Positions 22,452 to 43,467 of a stretch of DNA of 64,000 nucleotides are shown in pieces. This stretch comes from Kosmotoga olearia TBF 19.5.1. GTDB lineage: Bacteria > Thermotogota > Thermotogae > Petrotogales > Kosmotogaceae. The stretch lies in the NCBI RefSeq assembly GCF_000023325.1, contig NC_012785.1, positions 682,001 through 746,000 on the forward strand. The letters are read 5' to 3'. The first letter of the stretch is position 1; every line of letters starts with the position of its first letter. The position numbers were made by a program, and so were the translations under genes. The notes beneath the pieces are model-generated. The model was given only the letters and a program-made list of their open reading frames with translations, ran no database searches and was not told the origin of the DNA.

Positions 22452-22849
22452 TATTCTTTCACCTTCGCTTTAGCACCATATCGAGCATAGATAAGAGTTC
22501 TCTCCCAGAGATCTTTCACGAGGAAAAGAAAATCAGTATTATTACATATCTTTTCATTAACTAGATTTAGTGCATCTTCCGGCGATTGTATTTCCTTGTC
22601 CAAATTTTCAAGGTCGATTTGCAAAGCTTTACCTGCTGTACTAAGTAGCTCTTTAACAATTTTATCTGCAGTTTGGTCTTTTTTCTTATCCCGTGCATAT
22701 AGATAAAGAATACAGGCGTAGACGCCTTCTCCATGAAGAACTAAAAGAGTATCATTAATGAGTTTTTCAAGTTCTTTTGCATCTATCGCATTCAATTTGT
22801 TGAGAATTTCATTTCCTGATTTCGCGGCAATGTAATCAAGGTTTTTCAT
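22451..22849 (-). CDS. cmr5: Small subunit Cmr5 (Cas11)
   Basis: The 132-residue, mostly helical protein ends in a LWERTLIYARYGAKAK helix like Cmr5 of other Thermotogota. Cmr5 forms the inner belly filament of type III-B/C complexes and contacts the target RNA. Size and place between the Cas7-type Cmr4 and the last RAMP gene support the call, although small subunits are weakly conserved. Its ends overlap both neighbours by single bases, indicating tight coupling. Confidence 0.75.
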   Translation of the reverse strand: MKNLDYIAAKSGNEILNKLNAIDAKELEKLINDTLLVLHGEGVYACILYLYARDKKKDQTADKIVKELLSTAGKALQIDLENLDKEIQSPEDALNLVNEKICNNTDFLFLVKDLWERTLIYARYGAKAKVKE

Positions 22850-23793
22850 TAATCATCACCGTCCGAAGAGACCAGTTTCATTCTACCGAAGCCCCTTGTG
22901 ACCATTCCACCTATACCAAGATATTCGATAACTTTGAACCCATCCTCAACAACATCCATGGGTGACTTCCAGTTATTTATAATCTCATTTGTCTTCCCAT
23001 TTTTCTTAAATTCCATCATTACCTTTTTAAACTTCCCGGGAGAATAATCATCTTGAATAACTGTGGAGTACAACCATGTGGCTCTTGGAATAGCTTCATA
23101 AGTGAAGAGAGCACGATCCTCCGCAGCACCTGTTTCTGGATTTATCGCAACAGAAGTTCTTGTTTCAAGATTATCATTGACTATCCGTGTAAATAACTTA
23201 TCAGAGACTATATAAATCCTATCTTTGACAAGTTTCCAGTCATTGCTTTCTTTCAACCCATCAAAACTGGGCTCTTCAGCATTTATGCCTTCAACATCGA
23301 TGTATAACCAGCCAATTTTGATTTTTCCCTTTGCAGCATTGCCATTCAAGAGATAAGCCTTTTCTTCATCAAAACAAGGTTTGACATCAATTCCAATTTC
23401 ACATAATAGATTCTTGGTGGTCACCCACACTGTTCCTTCCGGTGAATAAACTGGGAACAGAATTATTCTTGCATCTGATAAGCTAACCATACCCGCTCTA
23501 CCCGATTGCTCAGAACCGGAGCCATTTATATAACCAAAGGTATATGATACTGGATTATTTGGATTGCTATTCTTTACTGCTTGTCCAGCAACATCTAGGT
23601 TGCCAATAAGCATCGCAGCGTACATTTTTGCAGCCCCTGAAAGGCTTGTTCCTGGGATTATTGGTAAATTTGAACCAGCTTCTCTCACTATTGTGTTATC
23701 AACTATCCCCAAATTTGCTCCACCTGTTCCTATATGTATCGGGTCAAGTGTCATGAAAATGAATTTCTTCTTTTTATAAAGTTCATTGTTCAT
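22849..23793 (-). CDS. cmr4: Cmr4 (Cas7-group backbone, target-RNA cleaving subunit)
   Basis: The 314-residue RAMP protein opens with LDPIHIGTGG, LGIVDNTIVREA and LPIIPGTSLSGAAK, all typical for Cmr4, and closes with LGIGGMVTRGFGRMKLV. D32 in GIVDN aligns with the Asp of Cmr4 that cuts target RNA every six bases, so RNA cleavage should be intact. Multiple copies make the backbone filament around the crRNA. The gene overlaps the Cas10 gene by four bases. Confidence 0.88.
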   Translation of the reverse strand: MNNELYKKKKFIFMTLDPIHIGTGGANLGIVDNTIVREAGSNLPIIPGTSLSGAAKMYAAMLIGNLDVAGQAVKNSNPNNPVSYTFGYINGSGSEQSGRAGMVSLSDARIILFPVYSPEGTVWVTTKNLLCEIGIDVKPCFDEEKAYLLNGNAAKGKIKIGWLYIDVEGINAEEPSFDGLKESNDWKLVKDRIYIVSDKLFTRIVNDNLETRTSVAINPETGAAEDRALFTYEAIPRATWLYSTVIQDDYSPGKFKKVMMEFKKNGKTNEIINNWKSPMDVVEDGFKVIEYLGIGGMVTRGFGRMKLVSSDGDD

Positions 23794-26771
23794 TCTATCA
23801 CCCCCGTTTTATCCTTTAATATGCTCATGTGAATTTCCAGCACATCAGAGAGTTTCCCATTCACGCAGAAATCAATGATTTTCTTTCTTTCATCGTTGCT
23901 GAGCGATGGTTTCCATTTAAGATTGCCAACAACATACTCAACATAAGCTTTGAAGACTTCATCATTATCCTCCAAAGAACTGGCCCAATCCCTTCGCTTT
24001 TTTTCTACAAGGCTGTTCAATTTCTTTATCTGGCTGTTTGGGAGTTTTGTTGAGAGCGTTGCCCATACCCTTTCGATATCGTCCAGATCGTCGAGATAAT
24101 ATGGCCGCTGCTTTCTGTTATCCGAACGCCTTTGGACTTTGTTGTTTTTATCGTTATAGCTTATCTCAAACCTCTGGGAAGCCGAAGAAAGGTATTCAAA
24201 ATCAAAATATGATGGTATGACGAGAATTTCATCACCTATCTTGAGTTCTGACACATGAATCAACCACTCTCCAGATGGCCCTTTGAAAGAAAGAGACCTA
24301 TTTTCAAGTTCAGCTTTGTCATTATTTACAACATAAAAATACGGATACCATATATCTTTTGAACCATCCCCCATCTTTGAAGGGATTTTCCAAATCTGCC
24401 CATTTTCAAATGACAATTTGAAATGATCAGGAAATTCATCCGGTTGCTTTGCTAACCTCCAAGTTTCCTGTTTATTATTTAATCGCATAAATCGGCGTCC
24501 GGCATCTATAATTGCTGGAAGTGCTGTATGATATCTTGCATACACTATCCCAAGATTCATAGGTAGCCGATTTCTGACTTTGCCCATTTCTTTCTCGTAT
24601 TTTTTCTTTATCTTTTTGGCAACCTTAAGCGCTTTATTGGCTGGAACAAGAACCATGAATCTTTCCGGATCTTTTGTTATTTCAATCACTGGAGAGTAAC
24701 TACATGATTCAATTTCAATATCCCCGATCCTTGAAATGGCTAATTTTTTTGTGGGGCTATTGGAGTTGTAGAAATCTATATTTTTACCATTCAGTATTTC
24801 TTTAATGCCATCAACCAGATTTTTCCAATTGCTTTTAGTATCAATATTTAACTTCTTAGCTAATAGTTCAAGGTTCTCAATTATCACAAAATTGGAGAAT
24901 TCATTAGCGCCTTTTGGATTATTAGCTTCGTAGAATACAGTGAATCTGATGCCATTGACTTTAACTTCATAAGCATTATTAACATTAAGATCTCTTAGAT
25001 TATTTGCTTGGATTTTAAGAATAAGCCTTTTATCTCGCATTCCCACGGTTTTTCTAATGTCAGCAAGTGCGTCACCCCAAAACTTGCTTGTTGTCTCCCA
25101 AACTCTACGAACCCTTGCAAATGAAGGAGGTTTCCGCCAAATTGAAAGGGCCAATTTCTCATATTTTGTGAGCTCTTTGTTAACTTCGAGATCTTCAGAA
25201 CCGACCATGAAGTTATAAAGACCATCAGCTGTCTTACGATCTCTTAAAACATATTTATTCCCAATACTTTTGAGTTTTTGCATTTCCAGCAATTTTACCG
25301 GTGTCGTTAGCTCTCTCATGAGTTCTGCGAATGAAAAACCAACGGTCTTCTTGAGATTTCTGAATGTTGAAAGACTGTCTGCATTACCGATCCAACTATT
25401 CAAGTTGAAACCAAAACTAAGCAGTGCTATTTTTCCCTTTGAATCTGCGATTTCATCGATCCATATAGTTTGTTCTTTCCTACTATCTAACCACTGTTTT
25501 GCTCTACCCGTAATTCTCTCTGAACATTCTTGGCACAATCTCTTTTGCTTATTTCTCATGGAATTACTATCAACAGGCTTTATGCAACAAGAAGAGCATA
25601 GTTCGGCTTTCTGAATCCAGAGATTTTGCAATCTTAGCGAAGGAATATTGGTATCAGTTTTCTTTGATATCATGGAACCCAAATTATAAAGATTTCTGGA
25701 AGACTTTTCGCTGATATAAAAGTATGGAGTTATTTCACCCTTCGTAATGGCAATAACCTCATCCAAAATTCTCTGTTTCAAAGTAACACCTTCATTGATG
25801 ATCAAATCATCAATTTCTAGTTTTTCACTTAGTTTTGGAATTAGGAAGGTTATCCCATTTATGTCTCTATATATTTCTAAGCCCAAAGGATACTCAACTT
25901 CAATAATCAACTTAACTCCGTCAAATGCTTCATCAATCAGCTTTCTTCGACTTGCAATATCGCCAATCCCAATCCCTTTTGCCAAATATTCTTCACCATT
26001 AAATGTCATATGGAGATATCTGAAAGTGTATTTGCTGTTCTCATCAAAAGGATCCTTATAACCATTTATAAGTCCTTCTGCAAGTTCTGCCTTGAAAAAA
26101 GCAACCGAAGAAACTGTTTGATCCCAAAGTGTAACATCGTTTATTGGTCTTCTTGTATCTCCTATTGTCTTTGTAAAGTGTTGATTCACGGCATTTATTA
26201 TTCCTATTCTAAGTTCATTCCATTTTTCAAAATTACCAGTCTTGTTAATTTGTAAAAGTTTCTGTGCCTCTATAATGGCACTTTCGATAAAAATATAAAG
26301 ATCCTTGGAATTTAGATCAATTTCATTAACATCTATGGGATCCTCTTCATAGCCAAAAGCAGTTGATATGCGGATACTTGAATTGTGTTGAGACGAGTAA
26401 GCACCACTTTTTAAAACTCCTTTTTCTGTACCAGAACCACGACCATGAGCATCATTCATCAGTTTATTGAATGCATTTGGGTCATTTTTTATTTTATTGT
26501 TCCCTAGTTCATGTTTTGAGATAAATTCTTCTATTATAAGGGGAGTCTGCAACTCTTGTACTGGTAGCTTTTTTTGGGAATTTTTGAGCAAATCTTCTTT
26601 AAAGAGTCTCCTAAGATTTTTGGATATACTGTTTGGCAATTTTGAAGACATTGAAAGATCACTATCTATAAATTCTTTAGTATATTTTCCTAACATATGC
26701 AACCAAGCCGCTATTTCGGCAGTAAGCAAAACATCTCTGTTTTCCGCAAGAACTGTCAAGTCTTTACTCAT
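23790..26771 (-). CDS. csx11: Csx11-type Cas10 lacking the cyclase GGDD motif
   Basis: The 993-residue large subunit of the type III module has several Cas10 landmarks. These are RRPINDVTLWDQTVSSVAFFKA (about 207-228), an iron/zinc-type Cys cluster at C392, C395, C413, C416, a first palm block IWIDEIADSKGKIALL (436-451), and a second palm block (about 695-745) with KVRNRLPMNLGIVYA. Where active Cas10 carries GGDD, this protein has KDPERFMVLVP (700-710), so cyclic-oligoadenylate synthesis is not expected. The N-terminus has LHMLGK (24-29) where the HD motif would lie, so DNase activity is also doubtful. These traits define the Csx11 family of subtype III-C. No Csm6/Csx1-type effector is nearby, which fits loss of the cyclase. 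Confidence 0.85.
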   Translation of the reverse strand: MSKDLTVLAENRDVLLTAEIAAWLHMLGKYTKEFIDSDLSMSSKLPNSISKNLRRLFKEDLLKNSQKKLPVQELQTPLIIEEFISKHELGNNKIKNDPNAFNKLMNDAHGRGSGTEKGVLKSGAYSSQHNSSIRISTAFGYEEDPIDVNEIDLNSKDLYIFIESAIIEAQKLLQINKTGNFEKWNELRIGIINAVNQHFTKTIGDTRRPINDVTLWDQTVSSVAFFKAELAEGLINGYKDPFDENSKYTFRYLHMTFNGEEYLAKGIGIGDIASRRKLIDEAFDGVKLIIEVEYPLGLEIYRDINGITFLIPKLSEKLEIDDLIINEGVTLKQRILDEVIAITKGEITPYFYISEKSSRNLYNLGSMISKKTDTNIPSLRLQNLWIQKAELCSSCCIKPVDSNSMRNKQKRLCQECSERITGRAKQWLDSRKEQTIWIDEIADSKGKIALLSFGFNLNSWIGNADSLSTFRNLKKTVGFSFAELMRELTTPVKLLEMQKLKSIGNKYVLRDRKTADGLYNFMVGSEDLEVNKELTKYEKLALSIWRKPPSFARVRRVWETTSKFWGDALADIRKTVGMRDKRLILKIQANNLRDLNVNNAYEVKVNGIRFTVFYEANNPKGANEFSNFVIIENLELLAKKLNIDTKSNWKNLVDGIKEILNGKNIDFYNSNSPTKKLAISRIGDIEIESCSYSPVIEITKDPERFMVLVPANKALKVAKKIKKKYEKEMGKVRNRLPMNLGIVYARYHTALPAIIDAGRRFMRLNNKQETWRLAKQPDEFPDHFKLSFENGQIWKIPSKMGDGSKDIWYPYFYVVNNDKAELENRSLSFKGPSGEWLIHVSELKIGDEILVIPSYFDFEYLSSASQRFEISYNDKNNKVQRRSDNRKQRPYYLDDLDDIERVWATLSTKLPNSQIKKLNSLVEKKRRDWASSLEDNDEVFKAYVEYVVGNLKWKPSLSNDERKKIIDFCVNGKLSDVLEIHMSILKDKTGVIE

Positions 26772-26804
26772 CTGAAATACCTCCCACTGTTTCTGAATGG
26801 GAAT

Positions 26805-28007
26805 TCAAAGCATATATTTTTTTAACATATCAATCAGTTCATCAAAGCTATTGAACTCACACATATTTTTTGGAGAATCTTTGACATTTAGTTGATTTCT
26901 ATAAGCTTCTCCCTTCTCCTTATACCAACGTTTGAATTGAGAGAATTCATTACCGCTCTGAAAACCGAGCTCACCTTTCTTTTCCTGAAATCTGTTATTA
27001 CTGAGCAGTTCTCCAGTTTCACTATCTACAAGTTCACTTCTCACGGTACCATTTTCATTGAGATATTTACGAAAATTCTTAGGCAGTTTTATTGCTTCGG
27101 TTTCTTTCTCTATCTTTATGGAAATATCAGTGTAGACTTTTCCGTTTTCTATAATGTTACTGGCTAGTCCATATCCGCTTGATGTTTTTGCACCAAAACC
27201 ATATACAGTGAACATTGCCTTAAGTCCTTTAACTATAAGTTTCAGATCTTCAAGCGTTTGATTCTTGATTTCTTCCTGTTCTTTTCCAATAAGATCGAAA
27301 GGAACATACAGAAGCGAGAACTTCCCTTTTTCACCGATGGGAACACACTCAATAAGTATTGGCATTGTACCGGTACGAGTCTTTCTATCATGAGGATTTA
27401 TGATTTCGAAACTGCATTTACTAAAAAATGTTGGAAAGAAGTGGAGCCGTCCTTGACGAAAACTATCTTTTTCCTGTCTTTCATTCCCAAATATACGAAT
27501 GATTTGCTTGTTGTTTTCTTTCATACCTTCTTGCCATAATGCCGAACGAAGGCAACCCTTCCAGGTAGATCCTGGAATGTAAGGGCAACCAAGCACTTTC
27601 TCTCGCTTTATAGAGTTTTCAATAATCGTAAAATTTTCATCATCTTTGGATATATAGGGCTTTTCAAGAGTGAATTCAAATTCGATAATGAATGAATATG
27701 GCGGTAAAATTTTAAGGATTTCCTCATCAATTTTGAGGTAAAATTCCTTACTTAATCTGTTATCATTAATATCTTCGCTTTTCTTTCTTCCCTTATAAAC
27801 CTTTCTTACGTAATTTCCCCCATCAGAATTTTCTTGAGTTTCGAAATATTTGAAAACTACTGTTAGCTCTGAATTGCTTAATTTATTGAGAACTTCTATG
27901 ATTTTTTTCCCATCTGGTTGTTCGTTCTTGAATTCTTTGGTGAGCTCCCTTATGATTCCTTTCCCCTGAATTTCAAAGATGGATTGCGAATTATAGTCAA
28001 GAATCAA
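26805..28007 (-). CDS. Type III RAMP protein, Cmr6/Cas7-group
   Basis: The 400-residue protein contains FTLEKPYISKDDENF, LGCPYIPGSTWKGCLRSALW and a Gly-rich loop VYGFGAKTSSGYG. These are typical of the large RAMP proteins found beside Csx11, and they correspond in role to Cmr6 at the head of the backbone. The C-terminal 100 residues are a charged helical extension. TTG start with AGAGGTGACC upstream; the gene overlaps cmr1 by 11 bases. Precise family name (Cmr6 versus another Cas7) is tentative. Confidence 0.72.
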   Translation of the reverse strand: MILDYNSQSIFEIQGKGIIRELTKEFKNEQPDGKKIIEVLNKLSNSELTVVFKYFETQENSDGGNYVRKVYKGRKKSEDINDNRLSKEFYLKIDEEILKILPPYSFIIEFEFTLEKPYISKDDENFTIIENSIKREKVLGCPYIPGSTWKGCLRSALWQEGMKENNKQIIRIFGNERQEKDSFRQGRLHFFPTFFSKCSFEIINPHDRKTRTGTMPILIECVPIGEKGKFSLLYVPFDLIGKEQEEIKNQTLEDLKLIVKGLKAMFTVYGFGAKTSSGYGLASNIIENGKVYTDISIKIEKETEAIKLPKNFRKYLNENGTVRSELVDSETGELLSNNRFQEKKGELGFQSGNEFSQFKRWYKEKGEAYRNQLNVKDSPKNMCEFNSFDELIDMLKKYML

Positions 28008-29076
28008 TTTCGGTCACCTCTCTTAGCGTCTTGTTTAGAGTAACAATCTCAATGTTAGAAAAAATTTTATTATATTCTCCATTTTCAATAAATATTTCGC
28101 GAATAATATCTGCAATATATCTCTCTGTAAATCCCCAAATGCGCAACTTATATTTATCATCATGCTGGTTCTCTTTATAGAAACTGCTTACAAATACTCT
28201 ACTCGCCCATTTATCGCCTTTTGTTCCTCCGAAAATTTCTGATGTCGCTTCTTTTGATTTGCTCTTTTGGAGATATCTCTTTCGCAACATATATCTAATA
28301 TCAAAGGACATTGATATATATAAATCATTATGATTACTACCTATATATTTTGGATTCTTGAGAAAAGTATTCTTAATATCATTCGCTTCAATTTCATCCG
28401 TTTCAAATTTCCAATAGTTCTTAAGTGAAAAAATTCCTTCATCACTATTACTTTTCTTAAAGTTATTTTTCTCAAGAAATTTGTGAATTTTTCGAAGTGA
28501 TTCCTTTGTTTCTTTCTTATCTATAAGTTCAAACAGACCATAACCAAATTGAGGTTTGGCTCCAATCGAACCAAATTCACTCATGATTGAAAGAACGGCT
28601 TTCAGCTGATCTTCAACTTGTTTTTCACTATTTCTAGAAAGAATTTTGAGTTCAAGAGAACCAAAGAAGTTTTTATCATCAAGATTCTGTTCAAAAACCT
28701 TTCTCAACCAATTTTTATTAATTTTACTATTAGTAACCTGACAAAATATTTTATTTCCTTCAACTGGTTGTTTCCCCTCACTTGTTATCTGCAAATTGAA
28801 CATTCTTTTCCATCCCGTTGTTCCAAACAAATAGCAAGCAGGGCAAAGTTTTGAAATCCTCTCTTCATTGTTCTTTTCTTTACCGGATAAACCACAGCGA
28901 TTATCTGAAGTCGGATCACAAACATGATATCCCAAACCCCTTGCAACAACTTCATACCACCAGCGGATACTTCCTATGATTCCTGTTTCGTGTATTCTGT
29001 CCATCTTTTCATCTGCTCCGCCTGTCCATAACGGGGTCAATGTTTTGATTTTGAATGTGATTGGCTCATTCCTCAC
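27997..29076 (-). CDS. cmr1: Cmr1 (Cas7-group subunit)
   Basis: The 359-residue RAMP protein begins ITFKIKTLTPLWTGG and continues RIHETGIIGSIRWWYEVVARGLG, the hallmark of Cmr1. A Cys cluster (C53, C61, C78, C81) may bind zinc. Cmr1 caps the complex near the crRNA 3' end. It is the first gene of the type III module, starting at GTG 21 bases after the intact cas2, and probably shares the long cas transcript. Confidence 0.87.
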   Translation of the reverse strand: MRNEPITFKIKTLTPLWTGGADEKMDRIHETGIIGSIRWWYEVVARGLGYHVCDPTSDNRCGLSGKEKNNEERISKLCPACYLFGTTGWKRMFNLQITSEGKQPVEGNKIFCQVTNSKINKNWLRKVFEQNLDDKNFFGSLELKILSRNSEKQVEDQLKAVLSIMSEFGSIGAKPQFGYGLFELIDKKETKESLRKIHKFLEKNNFKKSNSDEGIFSLKNYWKFETDEIEANDIKNTFLKNPKYIGSNHNDLYISMSFDIRYMLRKRYLQKSKSKEATSEIFGGTKGDKWASRVFVSSFYKENQHDDKYKLRIWGFTERYIADIIREIFIENGEYNKIFSNIEIVTLNKTLREVTEIDS

Positions 29077-29096: not shown

Positions 29097-29372
29097 TTAT
29101 ATTATTCCATTGTCTAACACTTGTTTTTTGTGTATTCCTAATATCTCAAGCCTCAACATTTTTCCCGTTCGAATTTTGGAGATTCTGATTGAATCTTCCT
29201 CCTTGTTAGTAACCTTGGTAAGTTTCACTTTGAGTTTTTCGAAAACAGCTTTTGTTAATTCTCCTACATGCACTGAATTTTGAACCCAATCAAGAAATTG
29301 CCTGCAAATCTTCAATATCTTGTTTACACGTTTTTCCTTAACATCATAAACAATCAGAATATAATTTCTTAT
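29097..29372 (-). CDS. cas2: Cas2 of the type I-B operon, with non-canonical start
   Basis: The Cas2 reading frame starts by homology at 29372 (91 residues: I/M-RNYILIVYDVKEKRVNKI), but the first codon is ATA and there is no ATG, GTG or TTG upstream of a TTG at 29315, which would delete the essential first strand. The codon overlaps the cas1 stop as ATAA. A single G-to-A change from an ancestral ATGA overlap would remove the cas2 start and leave the cas1 stop intact. Cas2 may therefore be poorly made. The remainder is full length with no disruptions. Confidence 0.7.
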   Translation of the reverse strand: MRNYILIVYDVKEKRVNKILKICRQFLDWVQNSVHVGELTKAVFEKLKVKLTKVTNKEEDSIRISKIRTGKMLRLEILGIHKKQVLDNGII

Positions 29373-30358
29373 CCTTTCCAGGGAGCGTATACTCTTTCAC
29401 CGGTGATGTGCTTTTCAATTTTATAGAGCTCAAGCCTTATGAGATATCTGTATGAAACATTTCTTTTTAACTGTGGGTGTTTAAATGTGGATTTTAGCTT
29501 TTCATCGTAGGCTCTTACAAAAATCTCCTTACCTTTATCATTCATATATATCCCCTCAAGATGCTTTGCAAAGTGTTTTGCCTGTATTTGTTTTTTGTTT
29601 ATGAGAGAAAATATGAGCCTATCTACAATAATGGGCTTGAATATCTCTGCAACGTCAAGATTTAATGAGAAACTTCTAAAGTTAGTTGTATGAAGAAATC
29701 CTATACGGGGATCAAGGTGCGTTCTGTATATTTCTCCAAGAACCGTTGTATAAAGCATTGTATTACCAAAACTGATAAGCGCATTGATTCTGTTCAACGG
29801 AGGTTGCCTTGATCTATTCACAAATTCAAAGCTTTTATTGTCAATAATTTTATCGAAGCATTTATAGTAAAGATCTCTGAAATTACCCTCAATCGCCATT
29901 ATTTCATCTACTGATGCCATTTCTTCAAGACGGTTCATAAGTTTTTTAAGCTTTTCTATATCCTCTTCCAAATCCTTCCCACGTCTGTTGTAATAAGCCA
30001 AAACACTTATCATATTACCCATTGAACCTTTCACAAAAATTCTTGCCAAATTAATTCGCTTAGCCCCATCATTATAGAAATTTGCCTGTTCTAAGACCAG
30101 AAAGCCAGAATTCAAGTGTTCGCGTGGATAATACGTTCCAGAGTAGTAATCATAACGATTGAAAAAGTGAATTGGAATCTGCTGTTTTGTAAGAAAATCA
30201 AGTACCCTTTTGTTCAGCTCAAGCTCTCCAAAGACACATATAGAATCTGTTTGCTCCACGGGTAGATGAACCTTCTTCCCATCTTCTTTTTCAAAAACAA
30301 GCGTATTATTCATTCTCAGTAATTTCCCCGAAGTGAATAGATATAACACTCTCTTCAT
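29369..30358 (-). CDS. cas1: Cas1 integrase (type I-B)
   Basis: Cas1 integrates new spacers with Cas2. The 329-residue protein has the N-terminal beta-sandwich and the alpha-helical nuclease domain with metal ligands E157 (IEGNF), H223 (FLHTTNF) and E238 (DVAEIFKP). Length and motifs are complete. The last 45 codons share an 86-base identical block with the remnant at 20866-20951, showing a recent exchange or duplication. Stop codon and the cas2 start overlap. Confidence 0.95.
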   Translation of the reverse strand: MKRVLYLFTSGKLLRMNNTLVFEKEDGKKVHLPVEQTDSICVFGELELNKRVLDFLTKQQIPIHFFNRYDYYSGTYYPREHLNSGFLVLEQANFYNDGAKRINLARIFVKGSMGNMISVLAYYNRRGKDLEEDIEKLKKLMNRLEEMASVDEIMAIEGNFRDLYYKCFDKIIDNKSFEFVNRSRQPPLNRINALISFGNTMLYTTVLGEIYRTHLDPRIGFLHTTNFRSFSLNLDVAEIFKPIIVDRLIFSLINKKQIQAKHFAKHLEGIYMNDKGKEIFVRAYDEKLKSTFKHPQLKRNVSYRYLIRLELYKIEKHITGERVYAPWKG

Positions 30359-30365
30359 ACATACA

Positions 30366-30863
30366 TCACACCCAACAATAAGTGTAATAAGCGCAATTCT
30401 TACAACGATTTTGTGATCTTTCTATTGGAGGAATTGGACCATCAACCAATTTTTGGATCTCGTCGCTCATTTCTCGGATACGTTTTTCTTCTTCCGCGGT
30501 AAGAATAACAGGTATCCGTTTTCTTTCCTTTGGAACAAGAAGCAAACCTTCAGCTTCAACTCCCATTTCTTTGAGCCTTCTTAAATAAAAGAGCAATTGA
30601 TCGCGAGCTCCATCAAGGGAATACTTCGATTTCTTAATCTCGCTTACAATTGTTTTGCCATTTTTTTCTTGAACAAGATCCAGTTTTATGTTATCTATGG
30701 CAACATCCTTTTCCCCTTTGTTTTCGTACGAAGTTTCGTGAAGAAGTCTTCCAAGGGCAAGATTAGTATTATCATTTTCAGGGAAAATTCTGTGAGCTAC
30801 AAGCCATGCTTCGCGATGGCAGTTTGAATATGAAAGTATAAGATAACCGTTTACGTCTATCAA
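30366..30863 (-). CDS. cas4: Cas4 nuclease
   Basis: This is a 165-residue RecB-like nuclease with an iron-sulfur cluster. C15 (NCHREAW) and C154, C157 and C163 (RCKNCAYYTYC) bind the cluster; H42, D62, E75 and K77 (SEIKKSK) form the active site. In type I-B systems Cas4 trims prespacers and selects the PAM. TTG start overlapping the cas3 stop; cas1 follows 7 bases downstream. Confidence 0.93.
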   Translation of the reverse strand: MIDVNGYLILSYSNCHREAWLVAHRIFPENDNTNLALGRLLHETSYENKGEKDVAIDNIKLDLVQEKNGKTIVSEIKKSKYSLDGARDQLLFYLRRLKEMGVEAEGLLLVPKERKRIPVILTAEEEKRIREMSDEIQKLVDGPIPPIERSQNRCKNCAYYTYCWV

Positions 30864-33190
30864 TAAATATCACTTCCTGCAGAATGAAAACCAGTTACGC
30901 TGTCATAGTATCTTTGAAGTTCCCTTTCGTCGTTAGAAACATAGTGGAAACCATTAACAACAGGTGGCAAAGCATTTTCTGACTCATTCCATTTCAATCG
31001 GTAATTAACTATGTAAGGAGCAAGTTTCCTAATAGCATCTTTTTTTTCAGCTAGAAGCTCAAATTTGTCCTGTGTGCTTATGTCTTTTGAAAGTATTTCC
31101 TGATAATTTTTCCAGGCATTTTTTGCATTTTCGTCGAGTTCTATAAAAACAGGGTTCGTTGGTCTTTCTTCTATGAGCTTAAATTCATTAATTTTTGAAA
31201 ATTCCAGCTTATAAATGTTTTTGAGTATCATTCGCGATTCTTCTTCAAATCCCTTGGTTTCGATTTCTGCAAGATAAATTTCAACAAGATTATAAAGCAT
31301 GGATTCACTGTAGTTATCATTATTAGAAAGTACTTTTCTAGAAGCAAACAACAAAACCGAATCGTATATTTTACTTGGATCTCTTTTACCCATGAATTCT
31401 TTTATATCTACAAGAATTACCTGTCCTTTCTTTTTCCTGTTCGATCTGTTCACCCTTCCTGCAACCTGAACAACACTATCAAGAGGACCAATATCACGAA
31501 TACAATAATCAAAATCCAGATCCACACCAGCTTCTACAAGTTGAGTCGTGACTAATACACGAAAACCTTTAAGATTTTTTAACTTCTCAATTCGGTTTTT
31601 TCTTACTATCGGGGGAACTTCGCTAGATAGATAATATAGATATTTTTTATCTACGAATTCCGATATTTCTTCCAGTACAGCTTTCGCACAGCCAATTGTA
31701 TTTAAAACCACCATAAGTCCTTTGCTCTCATCTCTGGCTTTTTCTACGACCTCTCTAAGAAATATTTCCTTGAATTTTTCGAAAGTTACTTCTCCGATAT
31801 AATGAAGATCAAATCTATCCAGAGGAATTTCCCCAGTATAGAGATGTTTTCCAGAGATACCAAAGCACTTTGGCATAGTAGCAGTTGAGAATACGAATTT
31901 AGTTCCGCCATAATCAGCAAGAAGCTTCAATATTTTTCCTGTCAGTTCCCAATACTTCGGAGGTATAGCTTGAATTTCATCTAACAAGACTATTGACCCA
32001 GGTATCCTAAAAAATTTCATGTTTCGTTTATTTGTGAAAATAGAATGAAAGAAACTGACAAAAGTAGTTATAATTATCTCACTATTCCAGGAATTTATAA
32101 GAAGATCGGCGAGATATTTCTCATAGCCTTCGCCTTCTTTAGTGGAGTATTCTATATCAGATAGGTGATGTTGCTGTAAAACCTGATTCTCAGTTGGAAA
32201 TGATCTACCAGTTTTTTCGAAAAGTTCTACGGCTACTTCATATGTTTGATCTATTATGCTCAGAAAGGGAAGGCAATAGATTATTCTTGGTACATAATCA
32301 CTATTCGTAAGTTTTTCTCTGAGTTTTAGCCCAAGTGAAAACAAAGTCAAAGTTTTGCCTATACCTGTTCTCCCTTTTAATATTCCTATGGAGAAGTCGG
32401 TATCATTAGTAGCTTCATGATAGAATTTGTTTCTAAGCTGGTTCATTGGATCTCTTCCAGGATTGTCAAAACCCAAGACTTTTCTATACTCTTCAACAAG
32501 GTCTTTGGGAATTGGATCCCTTTTTGGTAGTGGTCTATCCCTGAACGCTGCATCTGTTTTGTCTGCCCAATCAAGCAGGGATGAAAGATACATGTAAAGA
32601 ATGAAAGACTGAATGTCATTAACTTCGTAGAAATGATCCTGGAATTCATCCTGCCATTCATCTACATTATCTTCAAGTTCCAAAGGATCCAACTTAGGTA
32701 TCTGGATTTTATAAGCAAGTTCATTTAGAAACTTAGAATCGAGATTGGCTACCTGCCATTCCAACAAATCGACTTCATCATTTAGATCACAACCAAATTC
32801 AGGATATTCTGCTTTTCCGTGATGTCTTCTTACGAGAGTTACTATAAGAGGAATCAAATAATGTTTCTCTTCAGGTAGATTTGCTTTCAAATATTTCCCA
32901 ACAGCAAATGCTCCCAGAACAGCATGCAGAGATTTTTCTTTATCATATTTTAACTTCCGGATCTTTTTCTGAAACTCCGGTGTTGCTTTACCCAGATCAT
33001 GCAAATATGCTATCGCTTCTACGAGAAGTTTCAAGGTTGAATACTCAACTCCAAGAAACCTTTCAAAATCCATGTATTTCTTTGCAGTTTCTATTTCAGA
33101 CATCATCAGGTAATATACGCCTTTGAGATGGTCGATCAATAATCTTCCAGGTTCATTTCCCATTGGAGGGTGTGAATAAACCTCAGACAA
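30860..33190 (-). CDS. cas3: Cas3 helicase-nuclease (HD fused)
   Basis: This 776-residue protein degrades target DNA after Cascade recruitment. The N-terminal HD nuclease has H21, H64-D65 (LHDLGK), H89 and H123-H124. The SF2 helicase has Walker A GRTGIGKT (273-280), motif II DEIQ (404-407), motif III STAT (435-438) and motif VI QVAGRVNRSNR (575-585). All motifs look intact. TTG start; the gene overlaps cas5 by 8 bases. Confidence 0.95.
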   Translation of the reverse strand: MSEVYSHPPMGNEPGRLLIDHLKGVYYLMMSEIETAKKYMDFERFLGVEYSTLKLLVEAIAYLHDLGKATPEFQKKIRKLKYDKEKSLHAVLGAFAVGKYLKANLPEEKHYLIPLIVTLVRRHHGKAEYPEFGCDLNDEVDLLEWQVANLDSKFLNELAYKIQIPKLDPLELEDNVDEWQDEFQDHFYEVNDIQSFILYMYLSSLLDWADKTDAAFRDRPLPKRDPIPKDLVEEYRKVLGFDNPGRDPMNQLRNKFYHEATNDTDFSIGILKGRTGIGKTLTLFSLGLKLREKLTNSDYVPRIIYCLPFLSIIDQTYEVAVELFEKTGRSFPTENQVLQQHHLSDIEYSTKEGEGYEKYLADLLINSWNSEIIITTFVSFFHSIFTNKRNMKFFRIPGSIVLLDEIQAIPPKYWELTGKILKLLADYGGTKFVFSTATMPKCFGISGKHLYTGEIPLDRFDLHYIGEVTFEKFKEIFLREVVEKARDESKGLMVVLNTIGCAKAVLEEISEFVDKKYLYYLSSEVPPIVRKNRIEKLKNLKGFRVLVTTQLVEAGVDLDFDYCIRDIGPLDSVVQVAGRVNRSNRKKKGQVILVDIKEFMGKRDPSKIYDSVLLFASRKVLSNNDNYSESMLYNLVEIYLAEIETKGFEEESRMILKNIYKLEFSKINEFKLIEERPTNPVFIELDENAKNAWKNYQEILSKDISTQDKFELLAEKKDAIRKLAPYIVNYRLKWNESENALPPVVNGFHYVSNDERELQRYYDSVTGFHSAGSDIY

Positions 33191-33893
33191 GCATTATCAC
33201 CTCTTTTTGCTCACCGATGACAAGAGAAATAACACTTGTTTTCTCTGATTTTTTCAACAGTTGTATCTTTTTACCATTCTCTTCATATACTATTTCCGAG
33301 TATTCCTGAACTTTTCTCTCACAATCCATCCTCACAGCATGAGTTTCATGGAAAAGATTCAAACCACTCTCGAATTTGATTTCACCTTTATCAAAGAGAT
33401 AAATTACCGAATCCACAAGCGTCGGGATTTCATCAACACGTTTTCCTTCAAAAAAACCAACATAGCTCACTGAGGCTAAGAACTCCGAAATTCCAAGATA
33501 TGGAGTGTAATAACATTCTTTGTTTTTAACCACACTTTCTAGCTTTGCCAAAAAATCTTCGTTTCCAGATACATAAATCCTGTAAATCGGGGAAACGACA
33601 CATTCAACAGGAACCAAGATGCTACCACCATTTTTTGTGTGCAGATATTTAAGATTGAAAGTCGTCTTTTTTATGGAGGTTAACAATCGCACCCCTGTTT
33701 TTACATTGTTGGTTTCAAAAAACTTAGAATGTTCACTTTTTCCAAATCCTCCACTTGAAATCCCAAGAATACTACCAATTATTCCAAGAACTGCTGTACG
33801 TGGCGGGATGGAGTACGTTAGAGCAGAAGTAGTTGTATATGGTTTTCTGAAATGAGCATAATCACTAGAGATATCTAAGACGAGGACTTTCAT
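33183..33893 (-). CDS. cas5: Cas5 (type I-B)
   Basis: The 236-residue RAMP protein begins MKVLVLDISSDYAHFRKPY and TTTSALTYSIPPRTAVLGIIGSILG, the N-terminal signature of Cas5h/Cas5b. It holds the crRNA 5' handle in Cascade. Complete, start ATG with GAGGTGA upstream; 11 bases separate it from cas7. Confidence 0.92.
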   Translation of the reverse strand: MKVLVLDISSDYAHFRKPYTTTSALTYSIPPRTAVLGIIGSILGISSGGFGKSEHSKFFETNNVKTGVRLLTSIKKTTFNLKYLHTKNGGSILVPVECVVSPIYRIYVSGNEDFLAKLESVVKNKECYYTPYLGISEFLASVSYVGFFEGKRVDEIPTLVDSVIYLFDKGEIKFESGLNLFHETHAVRMDCERKVQEYSEIVYEENGKKIQLLKKSEKTSVISLVIGEQKEVIMLV

Positions 33894-33904
33894 AAGCCCT
33901 CACC

Positions 33905-34843
33905 TCACTTTGCCAGCGGTTTCATCTTACCATCAATCAAATTCTCAATTTTGAAAGGTTCACCATTTAAGGTTAGCTTGAGTCTTGGATCTATCCTATA
34001 TCTAATTTCTTTGATCTTATCGTTATATCTTTCAAGTAGTCCTTTCAGCTCTGAAACCTCTAAAACAAAATCGGAAATCCCTCTTATTTTCTCATCCAGA
34101 AGATCGGATACCAGCTTAATTGCTTTATCGAGCTCTCCTATATGGAAATTTTCATTATCGTTATATACAACATCTATAAGCAACCTGGGAAGCTGTTCCA
34201 TCTTCGAACGAGTTATAAGGTCCCTGGTTCCATTCCACAAGGCTTCGAAGAAGAAATCGATGTCGACTTCACGAAGAAGAGTTTCCTTAGCTGTATTTTG
34301 ATTTATTACACCATAAAATGCTATGCAAGAATAAGGGAGTTGCCATTTTTCACTGAAACTTCTTCCTTCTCTATCTTCCTTAGAAGCAAATGCAGCTGTC
34401 CCTTGAATAAAAACTGGATCTACTTTGTGTAGAGAACGTCCAAATCTAAACTGAACAGGTCCAATCATAGACATATTTAACTTAGAAATCGGAACTGTTC
34501 CCCCAAAGAGTCTTAAATCTATACATTTTTTAAGGAGTGCCTCTGCAGCAGTTTTTCTGTCATATTCTTTGCTGGTTATGTCGGGTATCAATTGTTTTGC
34601 CCTCTGTTCTGAGGTGACGGGGTCACCATTTATAAAAACTTCAAATTCGTACTCATCTTTTTCTTTATTAGCTGAAATCATGTATTCGCGACATGTCTTT
34701 TTTAGTCTTACATCTGAAACTATATTTACCCCCGTTACTTCATCCATCCTTGGCTTGTTTTCATCCAATGGATCTCCATTTGGATTTCCATCTTTCACAT
34801 CATAAACGAACACAATCTCATGTCTGTTTTTTATAAATTCCAT
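33905..34843 (-). CDS. cas7: Cas7 (Csh2, type I-B backbone)
   Basis: The 312-residue protein opens with EIVFVYDVKDGNPNGDP and continues NIVSDVRLKKTCREY, the Csh2/DevR signature. Copies of Cas7 line the crRNA spacer in Cascade. Complete, GGAGG ribosome binding site, 2-base gap to cas8b. Confidence 0.94.
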   Translation of the reverse strand: MEFIKNRHEIVFVYDVKDGNPNGDPLDENKPRMDEVTGVNIVSDVRLKKTCREYMISANKEKDEYEFEVFINGDPVTSEQRAKQLIPDITSKEYDRKTAAEALLKKCIDLRLFGGTVPISKLNMSMIGPVQFRFGRSLHKVDPVFIQGTAAFASKEDREGRSFSEKWQLPYSCIAFYGVINQNTAKETLLREVDIDFFFEALWNGTRDLITRSKMEQLPRLLIDVVYNDNENFHIGELDKAIKLVSDLLDEKIRGISDFVLEVSELKGLLERYNDKIKEIRYRIDPRLKLTLNGEPFKIENLIDGKMKPLAK

Positions 34844-34845
34844 AT

Positions 34846-36645
34846 CTATACCTCCTTATCCTCAATTTCTTTTTTATTCTCATTTGAACTCATCAACAAC
34901 CTTTTCGAAGCTTCTCCACAGAGAAAAGCATAATTTAAGTCAGTAATAGAAGATTTCCATTTCATTCCAGCTTTTAATTGATATTCTCCCGCAATTTCAA
35001 AAAGTCTCTTCATAAATTCCACATGAGAGGCATCTTTGATTTTTGTCAAGTAATACTTGAACTTACTTTTCATATAAGATAGATGCTCCTTAAAATCATC
35101 TGGCTTCATCCTGTAGCCCTTTATTCTTTGATCCGCTGTTCCAGTATAACCCTGTGATTCTTGGATATCCACGAATATTGAATGAATCATCCCAATAATA
35201 AAGGTGAGTTTTAATTCGTCATTCTTGAAGAAATCCGGGTATAACTCAAAAAAATCTTTTAAAATCTCAGACTTCGATTTACTCAAATCTAATCTCCCCC
35301 CTTCATGAAGATTGTTCAGTCTGTCCAAAAAGTATCCCATTGCCACTATGTTGCCTCTTTCAAAAAAGAGATTTTTTCTTTCTTTTTCATCAGCATTCAT
35401 TTTAAATGAATGTATATATCTCAACGCTGCCTTTTTGTATGGATCAAGATTTATCCTAAAACCTTTAAATATTGCCTGCATACACTTTAAGAAATCAGAA
35501 GGAGGAACTGGATTTTTGTCCGTTGCTTTTTTCTGGAGCTGAGAATAACCTTTGAAAACCTTCCAAAGAGTTTCAAACTTTATATATGGAGATCCCAGTG
35601 ATTTAAGTTCATTTTCAATACTGGTTGCAGCAAAATTGATCATTTTCAAACGAGAAGGGGGAACGTCTTGAATGTTCAGGTATAACTTAACTTCGTCCTT
35701 TTTCCTAGCTTTCATGAAAAAAACAAAATTTAGCGTTGAATAGGTTTCTTCTTTTCCAAGCTTTGCAACTATCTTTCTTTCAAACTTTTCGTATCTCCCA
35801 TTTTCTTCCTTAAAAGTATTTGTCAGGCTGTCAAAAGCAGCTAAAGTATTTTGAGCAAACCTGTGATGTTTTTCTATCCTTTCTCCAAAAAATCTAGGTA
35901 AGACATAAACCCGTGAATCATAAGAATCACAAGAACCATAAAAGTTTAGTGTTAGTTTTTCATCAGCTATCTTTTTACCAAGAGCTAATTTTGCAAAACA
36001 TTCTGAACAAAGTGGCATTGTGATATCGTGACTTTTTTTGTTCATCCTATATGCAAAACCTGGTTGATCTATGGTAGCGAATTTTAGGATATCACTAACT
36101 TTGGCACCTACTTCGGTTTCCTTTCCACAGATAAAACACGTTCCTGCTCTCGACTTTGGTAATTTCTGAACTTCTCCCAAGAAAATCTTTCGAAATTCTT
36201 CTATCTCACCCACATAACGTCCACTTATTACCACAGTAACAAAATAGCGTTCATTTTTGTCACAATTTTTAGCTGCAACTTCAATATCCCTAATTATGAC
36301 TTCTCTATTTTCTTTTAAAACTTTCTCTATACCAGAGATCAATTTTCCTTTATGAACCTCACAGTATTTAATAAATCTATCTATTATTCTTTCAGGTCCA
36401 TGTTTGGCTGGTTTAAGTGTAAGAGAATAAGGGTCAAACCTTGCAGATGGAGTTTTTCTGTAAAGATAGTTTACATCCTTTTTTTTCTCCATAGAACAGC
36501 CAGTATAGATTAAAGAACCATTTTTTGTTTCCACGTTTATTGTAATTGTTGCTGTATATTTCGCTCCCAGATCTTCTGTAAATTGTTGAGTTTCATCATA
36601 GTTCTTTTCGTGTATTTTACCGATTTCATATAACGCTTTAATCAA
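34846..36645 (-). CDS. cas8b: Cas8b (Csh1/TM1802 family), type I-B large subunit
   Basis: The 599-residue large subunit recognises the PAM. It has a zinc finger with C170 and C173 (CFICGKETEV) and C203 and C206 (LCSECF), as expected for Csh1/TM1802-type Cas8b. The C-terminal helical part (from about 450) probably supplies the small-subunit function by internal translation in some I-B systems. TTG start with AGAGGTG seven bases upstream. Confidence 0.9.
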   Translation of the reverse strand: MIKALYEIGKIHEKNYDETQQFTEDLGAKYTATITINVETKNGSLIYTGCSMEKKKDVNYLYRKTPSARFDPYSLTLKPAKHGPERIIDRFIKYCEVHKGKLISGIEKVLKENREVIIRDIEVAAKNCDKNERYFVTVVISGRYVGEIEEFRKIFLGEVQKLPKSRAGTCFICGKETEVGAKVSDILKFATIDQPGFAYRMNKKSHDITMPLCSECFAKLALGKKIADEKLTLNFYGSCDSYDSRVYVLPRFFGERIEKHHRFAQNTLAAFDSLTNTFKEENGRYEKFERKIVAKLGKEETYSTLNFVFFMKARKKDEVKLYLNIQDVPPSRLKMINFAATSIENELKSLGSPYIKFETLWKVFKGYSQLQKKATDKNPVPPSDFLKCMQAIFKGFRINLDPYKKAALRYIHSFKMNADEKERKNLFFERGNIVAMGYFLDRLNNLHEGGRLDLSKSKSEILKDFFELYPDFFKNDELKLTFIIGMIHSIFVDIQESQGYTGTADQRIKGYRMKPDDFKEHLSYMKSKFKYYLTKIKDASHVEFMKRLFEIAGEYQLKAGMKWKSSITDLNYAFLCGEASKRLLMSSNENKKEIEDKEV

Positions 36646-36651
36646 AAGTCA

Positions 36652-37380
36652 TCACCTCTTTCGCATCAATTCAACCATTCCAAATCCCTGCGCGTTTCTA
36701 GAGCCAAGACCCCAGTTAAAAGCCAGTTTAATTAATTCAGTATTGCCAGATAGTTCGAACTTCCCATCCCAGGCTATTATTGTGAATCCTTTGTACTTTA
36801 TAATCCTTTGCTTCATTTTACTTATTGGTTTTATTGAAAATTCATCATTTGAAAGTTCTAATCCTATCGCTTTTGCTTTTCTTAATAAGTTTTCTCTGAT
36901 TTGGATTCCAAAATCCTTCTCAAACGGGTTATAGTAATAGCTTTTCTTTTTGCCTTCTGGAGTTACCAAAGTAGAACGAACCGTAATTGGTGATAAAGTT
37001 ATCACCTTTATAGGAGACTCTTTAACTTTTTGATCAGAAACATCTAATTGAACAAGCTTTAATTTTTGACCAATAATATCCAATTCTTCACTCTTTAAAA
37101 ATTGATTACCAATAACTTGTATGATTTCATCAAACGGAGAAGCAATACTAAATGAAATTGGGGATTGAAAACTTATTCTGCCATTATATAAAGTGTGCTT
37201 ACCTTTTATTCTCGAAAAAACAAAAGGGCGAAATTGCCTGCTGTTATAGAGGGGACCGCTTTCATGAAAATCTGGAAGTTTCTTCGAGACAATTTTGAAA
37301 ATTAATGACTGAAGCATATGATTATAACTTATAGGAAGATCAATACTTTTATTACTCTCAAAAGCCAAAACGATTTTCAC
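36652..37380 (-). CDS. cas6: Cas6 crRNA endonuclease
   Basis: The 242-residue Cas6 has two ferredoxin-like folds. The Gly-rich loop GLGSRNAQGFG is at 224-234, and H21 (YNHMLQ) is a candidate catalytic residue. It cleaves the repeat 8 bases from its 3' end, leaving the ATTGAAAC tag. It is the only Cas6 in the window and so likely serves both effector modules. GTG start with GGAGGAAATAA upstream. It is the leader-proximal gene of the cas operon. Confidence 0.92.
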   Translation of the reverse strand: MKIVLAFESNKSIDLPISYNHMLQSLIFKIVSKKLPDFHESGPLYNSRQFRPFVFSRIKGKHTLYNGRISFQSPISFSIASPFDEIIQVIGNQFLKSEELDIIGQKLKLVQLDVSDQKVKESPIKVITLSPITVRSTLVTPEGKKKSYYYNPFEKDFGIQIRENLLRKAKAIGLELSNDEFSIKPISKMKQRIIKYKGFTIIAWDGKFELSGNTELIKLAFNWGLGSRNAQGFGMVELMRKR

Positions 37381-37735
37381 TTATTTCCTCCTATTTTTAC
37401 CGTCAAGACACAGAAACCAAAAACACACCTTAAGTTTTGCAAGGGCATTTCTTTACGCAAGTATGCTTATTTTATGAAGTAACTCAATTAAATACTAACA
37501 TATTAATTGTGTTGAATGCAAATATTTAGCATTATGTTATTTTTTTCAATCTGCTGCCACATATAAGAACATGTCGATGTCTAATAAGCAGAAATTCCTA
37601 GGAGATCGACAGAAACTTGTGAACTAGCGCAAGCGTCATTATTGGGTGAAAAGCTAAAATAAAGGGTGAAAAATTCCTTCAAAATTGATATTTTTGAAAA
37701 AACCACAAAAGGTTATATAATCTATATAGTAATTG
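37381..37735 (+). promoter_or_regulatory. CRISPR leader
   Basis: The 355 A+T-rich bases between the divergent cas operon and the first perfect repeat form the leader. The position is fixed by repeat orientation and by decay of repeats at the other end. Spacer 1, next to it, is the newest. A minus-strand promoter for cas6 must also lie here but is not clear. Confidence 0.85.
37694..37721 (+). promoter_or_regulatory. Predicted array promoter
   Basis: TTGAAA (37694-37699), a 16-base spacer and TATAAT (37716-37721) place the start near 37728, only about 8 bases before the first repeat. Confidence 0.55.
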
Positions 37736-40700
37736 GTTTATAGAATACCTATGAGGAATTGAAACTTCCCCTCATTCTTTTAAAAAAACCACGCTGGTGG
37801 AGCGTTTATAGAATACCTATGAGGAATTGAAACATCTGCCAAGATAAGTAAAGCTGTGCATTTGACTAGTTTATAGAATACCTATGAGGAATTGAAACAA
37901 AGGTATTATGAAACAGGCAGCGACCAAGCAATAGTTTATAGAATACCTATGAGGAATTGAAACTTCCACACAGCCTTTTTTTATCATTTTTTTCTGGTTT
38001 ATAGAATACCTATGAGGAATTGAAACCTTCTTTTTGCACTTCATTGATAGCTTTGTCTAGTTTATAGAATACCTATGAGGAATTGAAACCACGAATTACC
38101 CAAAGAGGTGCATGCCTAATCTTCAGTTTATAGAATACCTATGAGGAATTGAAACCAGAAATAGATATGGAAGACGTCATAAATACAGTGTTTATAGAAT
38201 ACCTATGAGGAATTGAAACTCCTCCAGCTTCGCCGGAATAAAGACCCTCCCGTTTTGTTTATAGAATACCTATGAGGAATTGAAACTATTTAAGATGTCG
38301 AGAATAGATTTCAAGACATCCAGAGTTTATAGAATACCTATGAGGAATTGAAACGTCGATAACAAGTATGCGCTGGTCCCCGGTCAATTCCGTTTATAGA
38401 ATACCTATGAGGAATTGAAACAAGTGCCATCGACAGCCTCTCTTGCAGGCGGTACAGTTTATAGAATACCTATGAGGAATTGAAACTTCTAGTGATAGGT
38501 CGACTCGAAATCGACCACAGAGAGTTTATAGAATACCTATGAGGAATTGAAACAGGTGTAGTTTTGTCATGCAGGCGTGGCGGAATTGGGTTTATAGAAT
38601 ACCTATGAGGAATTGAAACTGCCATCAACCAAAATAGAAAGTGTACCAGCGTGTTTATAGAATACCTATGAGGAATTGAAACAGCTATCCTCTCGCCTTT
38701 CTTGATTTTCTGCCCCTCATGTTTATAGAATACCTATGAGGAATTGAAACACCTGCAAGCCGGAACGAAAACGAAGAAGTGGGAGCGTTTATAGAATACC
38801 TATGAGGAATTGAAACTCGATAAGAGCTTCAAAAGACAGTGTTCTAAAATATCGTTTATAGAATACCTATGAGGAATTGAAACTACATTTTTCTCCATGT
38901 GTGTCAAAATGGCAAAAAGTTTATAGAATACCTATGAGGAATTGAAACACCAGATGGGAAGAGCTAATGAAAGAAGGCGAAAAAGGTTTATAGAATACCT
39001 ATGAGGAATTGAAACTACTGCTCCATGCTCTGGTTCCCATTGTTCCCGTTTATAGAATACCTATGAGGAATTGAAACTCGTATATTTGCGGCCAATTTTC
39101 CGATAGATAGGTTCTGGTTTATAGAATACCTATGAGGAATTGAAACTTGAAATATTGGGTACAAGACTGCAAAAATAGAGTTTATAGAATACCTATGAGG
39201 AATTGAAACCGAATAGCAACGGCCAATACAGCGAACAAACGAATAGTTTATAGAATACCTATGAGGAATTGAAACCAACTTCTCGAGAGGCTGCCAGAGG
39301 GTAAGATTCTGTTTATAGAATACCTATGAGGAATTGAAACTACTGCTTAACGGTGGTACTTGACCGTTGCGAATAGTTTATAGAATACCTATGAGGAATT
39401 GAAACTCGCATTTTCTTATTGCATTCTAATTACATGAAGTTTATAGAATACCTATGAGGAATTGAAACACGCCAACCACGCCTTCAAATATTTCTTCGCT
39501 TGTGTTTATAGAATACCTATGAGGAATTGAAACCTAAGAATACCATTGAATGGTTAGATAACATTTTCGTTTATAGAATACCTATGAGGAATTGAAACCG
39601 GAAATGCGTGAAGATGTTGATTACCTCGGTTTCGTTTATAGAATACCTATGAGGAATTGAAACAATTTATCGAAAAACTTCGTAAGCGCACCAGCCGCCC
39701 AGTTTATAGAATACCTATGAGGAATTGAAACTTTGCCAACGTAGTTTTCCCAATCATCTGGAATTTCGTTTATAGAATACCTATGAGGAATTGAAACAAG
39801 CTATCTCAGAATCTTTTGGCAAGCAAGTTGTCGTTTATAGAATACCTATGAGGAATTGAAACTTTCCTTGTCTTCACCTTGATCATTTACAAGCTTGTTT
39901 ATAGAATACCTATGAGGAATTGAAACTATCACCTTTAGCCGAATATAGTCTAATCCCATCGTTTATAGAATACCTATGAGGAATTGAAACTCGGTTTCCC
40001 GGGTCGAGGGTAATGCGCTCTCGCGTTTATAGAATACCTATGAGGAATTGAAACAAGAACTTCCGAAACATACGGAGTATGCCAGTATTCCGTTTATAGA
40101 ATACCTATGAGGAATTGAAACTCCAGCATTCCTGCGGTATCTGCACCGAAGATGTAGTTTATAGAATACCTATGAGGAATTGAAACCCTCAAATCTTTTT
40201 CATACTCTCTGCGCGTTTTATCAAGTTTATAGAATACCTATGAGGAATTGAAACATATATAGCATGAATTCCAACGCCATTATTTTGAGGTTTATAGAAT
40301 ACCTATGAGGAATTGAAACACAAGATAATAGTCTACCCAGGCAGCTACATGAAAGTTTATAGAATACCTATGAGGAATTGAAACAAACTTTTGGGAGATA
40401 TAATCCGTTGAACTTTATGTTTATAGAATACCTATGAGGAATTGAAACTCCTTTAGAACACATGGGGCTCAAACGTCCGCGTGTTTATAGAATACCTATG
40501 AGGAATTGAAACAATACCTTTCCGCTTCCGCAGGATACTTTTCACTGCGTTTATAGAATACCTATGAGGAATTGAAACTTAACCATCTGGAAGCGTTATC
40601 GCTGTCAGACTCGATAGTTTATAGAATACCTATGAGGAATTGAAACCTCCTACCATAACCTTTCCACCATATCCAGCTATGTTTATAGAATACCTATGAG

Positions 40701-43232: not shown

Positions 43233-43467
43233 GTTTTTAGGTTACCTATAAGGGCTAGAAGCGTACACCGTGATACCACTACTATTGACACTCTACCGGT
43301 TTTTAGGTCATCTGTAGGGGGGAGAAGTTCCGACAACATGATATACTACATGTAAAATTGTGTTATGTAAGTATTTATAGATTAACTACAAGGAGTTGAA
43401 ACAATTCCATCTTCTGGAATTTGATGTTCTGACATTTATTTGTAGAATACCTATAAGGAATTACATT
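43233..43467 (+). repeat. Decayed distal repeats of the array
   Basis: Four degenerate repeat copies continue past the array: 43233-43262 (8 mismatches), 43299-43328, 43373-43402 and 43438-43467. They keep the 65-74 base period. The last two retain AAGGA plus ATTGAAAC-like or AATTAC ends. They are the oldest units, and decay away from the leader confirms array polarity. Confidence 0.8.

What the first reader, a model, noticed from the sequence alone, without database searches (positions are those of the whole stretch)
38554..38589. Spacer spanning the 5' end of a tRNA-Leu gene
The spacer ends GCAGGCGTGGCGGAATTGG (38571-38589). This is a 7-base acceptor strand followed by TGGCGGAATTGG, the D-arm start universal in bacterial tRNA-Leu. 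The first 17 bases would be the sequence just upstream. The protospacer may be a virus-borne tRNA, an integration site, or the host's own gene, which would be self-targeting.
Basis: partly seen in the sequence, partly recalled or inferred. Interest (0 to 1): 0.6.

Follow-up and report, generated by a model that had tools for sequence, protein, structure and literature searches.

The report
CRISPR spacer from a foreign tRNA-Leu gene
One of 83 immune-memory sequences in a heat-loving bacterium (Kosmotoga olearia) ends in what looks like the start of a leucine transfer-RNA gene; the gene is not the bacterium's own and most likely belonged to an unsequenced virus or other mobile element, so this is ordinary CRISPR memory with one slightly unusual target.

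Summary
Window 38554-38589 is spacer 13 of 83 in the only array with this repeat in Kosmotoga olearia TBF 19.5.1 (2,302,126 bp). Its last 19 bases, GCAGGCGTGGCGGAATTGG, fit the first 19 bases of a tRNA-Leu gene. In the host genome the signature TGGYGGAAYTGG occurs only at the five tRNA-Leu genes and in this spacer. About 72 of 81 exact 19-mer matches in public contigs are tRNA-Leu starts; 9 lie in apparent coding DNA.

It is not self-targeting. Each host tRNA-Leu differs from the 36-mer at 15-19 positions, 6-8 of them in the 8-base PAM-proximal seed. The 19-mer (up to 1 mismatch) occurs in none of 102 other Thermotogota genomes, so the tRNA is foreign. An integration-site origin is disfavoured, because elements usually use the 3' end of tRNA genes and this is the 5' end.

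The full protospacer was not found in viral, genome, phage or plasmid collections, so no PAM could be read and the donor is unknown. Best explanation: type I-B immune memory against an unsequenced virus or other mobile element carrying its own tRNA-Leu. Spacer 36 of the same array matches a K. pacifica siphovirus-like prophage. Low interest.

The parts
38554..38589 (+). Spacer 13 of 83 (36 bases)
   Evidence: Between perfect repeats at 38524-38553 and 38590-38619
38554..38570 (+). AGGTGTAGTTTTGTCAT: inferred sequence just upstream of the foreign tRNA gene; the PAM-proximal (seed) part of the spacer
   Evidence: No exact match in viral contigs for these 17 bases plus the following G; first 22 bases of the spacer absent from genome contigs
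38571..38589 (+). GCAGGCGTGGCGGAATTGG: first 19 bases of a tRNA-Leu gene (7-base acceptor strand, positions 8-9, start of D-arm)
   Evidence: About 72 of 81 exact matches in public contigs are tRNA-Leu starts; TGGYGGAAYTGG is tRNA-Leu-specific in the host genome
37736..43197 (+). CRISPR array, 84 repeats and 83 spacers, read left to right
   Evidence: the two repeats with a base change (42117-42146, 43168-43197) and degenerate remnants lie towards the right end
37381..37735 (+). Inferred leader, between cas6 and the first repeat
   Evidence: Position and A+T-rich sequence; inference
36652..37380 (-). cas6
   Evidence: NCBIfam TIGR01877, 9e-40
34846..36645 (-). cas8b-like (TM1802/Csh1)
   Evidence: TIGR02556 5e-42, just below its cut-off; TIGR02591 3e-18
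33905..34843 (-). cas7 (Csh2, type I-B)
   Evidence: TIGR02590 3e-82
33183..33893 (-). cas5 (Cas5h, type I-B)
   Evidence: TIGR02592 4e-39
30860..33190 (-). cas3 with HD and helicase domains
   Evidence: TIGR01587 5e-32, TIGR01596 2e-22
30366..30863 (-). cas4
   Evidence: TIGR00372 7e-25
29369..30358 (-). cas1 (type I-B)
   Evidence: TIGR03641 7e-135
21621..29076 (-). Type III (Cmr-like) module: Cmr1, a RAMP protein, Csx11 and further genes
   Evidence: TIGR01894 4e-26 and TIGR02682 6e-145; remaining ORFs, not searched

Best explanation
The spacer is ordinary type I-B immune memory taken from a foreign element, most likely a virus, that carries its own tRNA-Leu gene. The protospacer straddles the 5' boundary of that gene: 17 upstream bases followed by the first 19 bases of the tRNA. 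Expected working (established for type I systems, not tested here): Cas6 cuts the array transcript at the repeats; the crRNA, which has the sense of the tRNA, pairs with the template strand of the element's DNA; Cascade (Cas8b/Cas7/Cas5) recruits Cas3 to destroy it. Because the PAM-side seed lies in the non-tRNA part, the conserved tRNA part alone should not trigger cutting of the host's own tRNA-Leu genes. Shown: position, tRNA-Leu resemblance, absence from host and phylum, cas genes. Inferred: donor type, PAM side, activity.
For: tRNA identity. Foreign to the host: the host has 46 tRNA genes (matching the 46 published in PMC5217533) and five tRNA-Leu genes with acceptors GCGAGAG, GCCGGGG (twice) and GCCGAGG (twice). 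Foreign to the phylum: no 19-mer with up to 1 mismatch in 102 other Thermotogota genomes. tRNA-Leu genes with these exact 19 bases do occur on contigs classed as viral: L048 in an 8-tRNA cluster and L049. The array targets viruses of the genus: spacer 36 matches a K. pacifica siphovirus-like prophage in 32 of 37 bases and 12 of 12 residues, EYWHTPYVSEVL. The near-duplicate pairs S35/S58 and S31/S76 share their 5' ends, and S35/S58 differ at the 3' end, as expected if acquisition is anchored by a 5' PAM. Published work finds that most spacers come from host-specific, mostly unknown viromes and that self-targeting is selected against (PMC7308287).
Against: No protospacer found, so no donor, no PAM, and no proof that the tRNA is complete or virus-borne. 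The records of the K. pacifica-type viruses searched carry no exact tRNA-Leu signature (some are fragments), so the donor would be another virus or element. Four of the six reading frames of the spacer are open and 9 of 81 exact 19-mer matches lie in apparent coding DNA.
Confidence: 0.72

Rival explanations
1. The spacer came from a chromosomal tRNA-Leu of another bacterium whose DNA entered the cell, for example a Bacillota neighbour, or from an integrative element next to such a gene.
For: The 19-mer is commonest in tRNA-Leu (TAG) of Bacillota and Patescibacteria chromosomes. 5'-end integration into tRNA genes is known but rare (PMC6563490).
Against: Upstream sequences of all matches agree with the spacer's first 17 bases in at most 9 of 17 positions; the first 22 bases of the spacer occur in no genome contig.
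Confidence: 0.15
2. The resemblance is chance: the protospacer is part of a protein-coding gene of a mobile element.
For: 9 of 81 exact 19-mer matches are coding; four frames are open; most phage DNA is coding.
Against: The expected count of the 12-mer signature in all 83 spacers is about 9e-4; in the host genome it marks only tRNA-Leu genes; none of the open frames matches a protein of the K. pacifica-type viruses.
Confidence: 0.1
3. Self-targeting of a host tRNA-Leu gene (regulation or autoimmunity).
For: Host Leu-TAA and Leu-CAG share 17 of the last 19 bases.
Against: 15-19 mismatches overall, 6-8 of 8 in the PAM-proximal seed; no match with up to 3 mismatches in the complete genome besides the spacer. 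The crRNA has the sense of the tRNA, so the type III complex could not pair with the tRNA transcript.
Confidence: 0.01

Closest known systems
Ordinary type I-B CRISPR spacers against mobile elements (Cas6-Cas8b-Cas7-Cas5-Cas3-Cas4-Cas1)
   Same: Array, repeat, spacer length and cas genes are typical; another spacer of the array matches a prophage of the same genus.
   Different: The target is an inferred tRNA gene boundary instead of a protein-coding gene; its protospacer is unknown, as for most spacers.
Phage-borne tRNA genes (tRNA clusters of tailed phages)
   Same: tRNA-Leu with the identical first 19 bases occurs on contigs classed as viral (L048, L049).
   Different: No such gene is known here from a Thermotogota virus; only its first 19 bases are seen, through the spacer.
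Self-targeting spacers
   Same: Part of the spacer resembles a host housekeeping gene.
   Different: The match is partial, PAM-distal, and far too poor for targeting.

Membership tests
CRISPR spacer of a type I-B system | Lies between identical repeats in an array next to type I-B cas genes | tested here: met
CRISPR spacer of a type I-B system | Protospacer with a functional PAM in a foreign element | tested here: inconclusive
   No protospacer found in any collection searched
tRNA-Leu 5' end | Exact first 19 bases of annotated tRNA-Leu genes | tested here: met
   67 of 81 exact matches are ARAGORN tRNA-Leu starting at the first base, about 5 more by inspection
tRNA-Leu 5' end | Full cloverleaf continuing downstream | not testable with these tools
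   The spacer ends after 19 bases; a tRNA covariance model is blind to fragments this short, as shown by a real host tRNA-Leu control
Self-targeting spacer | Near-identical match in the host genome outside the array | tested here: not met
Integration (att) site of a mobile element | Lies at the part of the tRNA gene used for recombination, usually the 3' end | tested here: not met
   The spacer covers the 5' end; 5'-end use is rare but known (PMC6563490)

The most novel reading that the evidence does not exclude
The spacer records an unsequenced virus or plasmid of Thermotogota that carries its own tRNA-Leu of Bacillota or Patescibacteria type, pointing to an element that crosses phyla.
Probability: 0.25. 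Interest if true: 0.4.

Novelty: new member of a known kind. Interest (0 to 1): 0.2.

Why it matters
It is one concrete sequence tag for an unknown tRNA-bearing element of Kosmotoga: 36 bases that can be searched for in oil-reservoir and vent metagenomes. It also shows that a spacer touching a conserved tRNA need not be self-targeting when the conserved part is on the PAM-distal side. It does not change how CRISPR is understood.

Tried and rejected
Self-targeting: rejected by whole-genome search and mismatch counts. Rfam scan of the spacer: no hit, but a real host tRNA-Leu fragment of the same length also gave no tRNA hit, so the test is uninformative. Phage and plasmid BLAST with the spacer: only E = 0.1 or worse. 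BLAST with the whole array: mostly repeat matches to other arrays. Relaxed viral patterns: none, or three hits with 15-17 mismatches. Weak matches of spacers 4 and 7 to housekeeping genes (ftsH-like, cheA-like, by inspection) of other Thermotogota: taken as chance. PAM inference from other spacers: only S36 has a solid protospacer in a virus, so no consensus. Spacer-to-virus peptide matches other than S36 were no better than the reversed-peptide control. Only the first 48 spacers were scanned against the Thermotogota genomes.

Full report
WHAT IS THERE. The window is positions 682001-746000 of a complete 2,302,126-base genome. That is the published size of Kosmotoga olearia TBF 19.5.1, which also has 46 tRNA genes (PMC5217533), and the Rfam tRNA search finds 46 here. 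The finding is spacer 13 of 83 in an array at 37736-43197 with the 30-base repeat GTTTATAGAATACCTATGAGGAATTGAAAC. All 84 copies of this repeat in the genome (up to 3 mismatches) are in this one array. The spacer is AGGTGTAGTTTTGTCATGCAGGCGTGGCGGAATTGG, exactly at 38554-38589.

ORIENTATION AND SYSTEM. The genes at 29369-37380 are cas6, cas8b-like, cas7 (Csh2), cas5h, cas3, cas4 and cas1 of type I-B, followed by a type III (Cmr1, RAMP, Csx11) module (a cas2 gene was not checked). The repeats with base changes and degenerate remnants lie towards the right end, so the leader is on the left and the crRNA is the + strand (inference). Two near-duplicate spacer pairs, S35/S58 and S31/S76, share their 5' ends, and S35/S58 differ in length at the 3' end, as expected if the 5' end is fixed by a PAM (inference). 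The tRNA part is therefore PAM-distal, and the crRNA has the same sense as the tRNA.

IS IT A tRNA-Leu START? Yes, with about 90% confidence. TGGYGGAAYTGG occurs six times in the whole host genome: five tRNA-Leu genes and this spacer, with none in the reversed control. The expected number in all spacers by chance is about 9e-4. In public collections the 19-mer GCAGGCGTGGCGGAATTGG gave 4 viral and 75 genome loci with 81 matches. ARAGORN as tRNA-Leu starting at that base (54 TAG, 8 CAG, 5 CAA); about 5 others are truncated or interrupted tRNA-Leu by inspection; 9 lie in apparent coding DNA of organisms such as Pseudomonas, Roseiflexus and Planctomycetota. A covariance-model test on 36 bases is uninformative, as a control showed.

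IS IT THE HOST'S OWN? No. The full spacer has no match with up to 3 mismatches in the host besides itself. The host's tRNA-Leu genes have acceptors GCGAGAG, GCCGGGG (twice) and GCCGAGG (twice). Aligned at the tRNA start they differ from the spacer at 15-19 of 36 positions, with 6-8 of the first 8 bases mismatched.

WHOSE IS IT? Unknown. The 19-mer (up to 1 mismatch) is in none of the other 102 Thermotogota genomes held; the full spacer (up to 3 mismatches) is in none of 60 relatives. Exact or relaxed searches of viral contigs, an exact 22-base search of genome contigs and BLAST of phages and plasmids gave no protospacer. Among loci with the 19-mer, the best agreement upstream is 9 of 17 bases. 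tRNA-Leu genes with exactly this start exist on contigs classed as viral, one in a cluster of 8 tRNA genes (L048) and one in L049, so a viral donor is plausible.

WHAT DOES THE ARRAY TARGET? A scan of the first 48 spacers against 103 Thermotogota genomes found one convincing prophage match. Spacer 36 matches K. pacifica (G002; 2,169,170 bases) at 140885-140921 in 32 of 37 bases, inside a siphovirus-like prophage whose terminase, portal, capsid and tape-measure roles are assigned by inspection and gene order, and in 12 of 12 residues. Related terminases at 67-100% identity occur on 11 viral contigs. Their records carry no exact tRNA-Leu signature, so the donor of spacer 13 is probably a different element.

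MECHANISM. Most likely: adaptation took a protospacer at the 5' edge of a foreign tRNA-Leu gene; the type I-B effector uses it against DNA. The type III complex cannot pair with the tRNA transcript, because the crRNA is in the sense orientation. A tRNA integration site is less likely because elements mostly use the 3' end of tRNA genes (PMC6563490). An unmatched spacer is normal: most spacers come from unknown, host-specific viromes, and self-targeting is selected against (PMC7308287).

VERDICT. Real, correctly read in the main, ordinary in kind. Interest 0.2.

Noticed in passing
window 38683-38720 and 43062-43099: Spacers 15 and 82 overlap by 26 bases in reverse complement: two acquisitions from opposite strands of the same site of one element.
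   Followed up: partly
window 39732-39767 / 42667-42702 and 39991-40024 / 41495-41531: Near-duplicate spacers S31/S76 and S35/S58, each with one base difference and the same 5' end: repeated acquisition from related elements.
   Followed up: partly
L132 19885-19921 (G002:C1:140885-140921): Spacer 36 matches a K. pacifica siphovirus-like prophage in 32 of 37 bases and 12 of 12 residues; 5' flank TTCTG.
   Followed up: yes
L135 4193-4259 (G087:C30): An array of another Thermotogota family, with the related repeat GTTTAGAAAATACCTATGAGGAATGGAAAC, holds a spacer overlapping K. olearia spacer 24 on the opposite strand (27 of 28 bases): apparently the same element seen by two lineages.
   Followed up: partly
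window 43373-43460: Degenerate repeat remnants (ATTTATAGATTAACTACAAGGAGTTGAAAC and a second) beyond the last good repeat, the decayed old end of the array.
   Followed up: no
L047 10800-10882 (minus strand): Viral contig with a tRNA-Leu-like start followed by a sequence that does not continue as a normal tRNA; possibly an interrupted tRNA gene.
   Followed up: no
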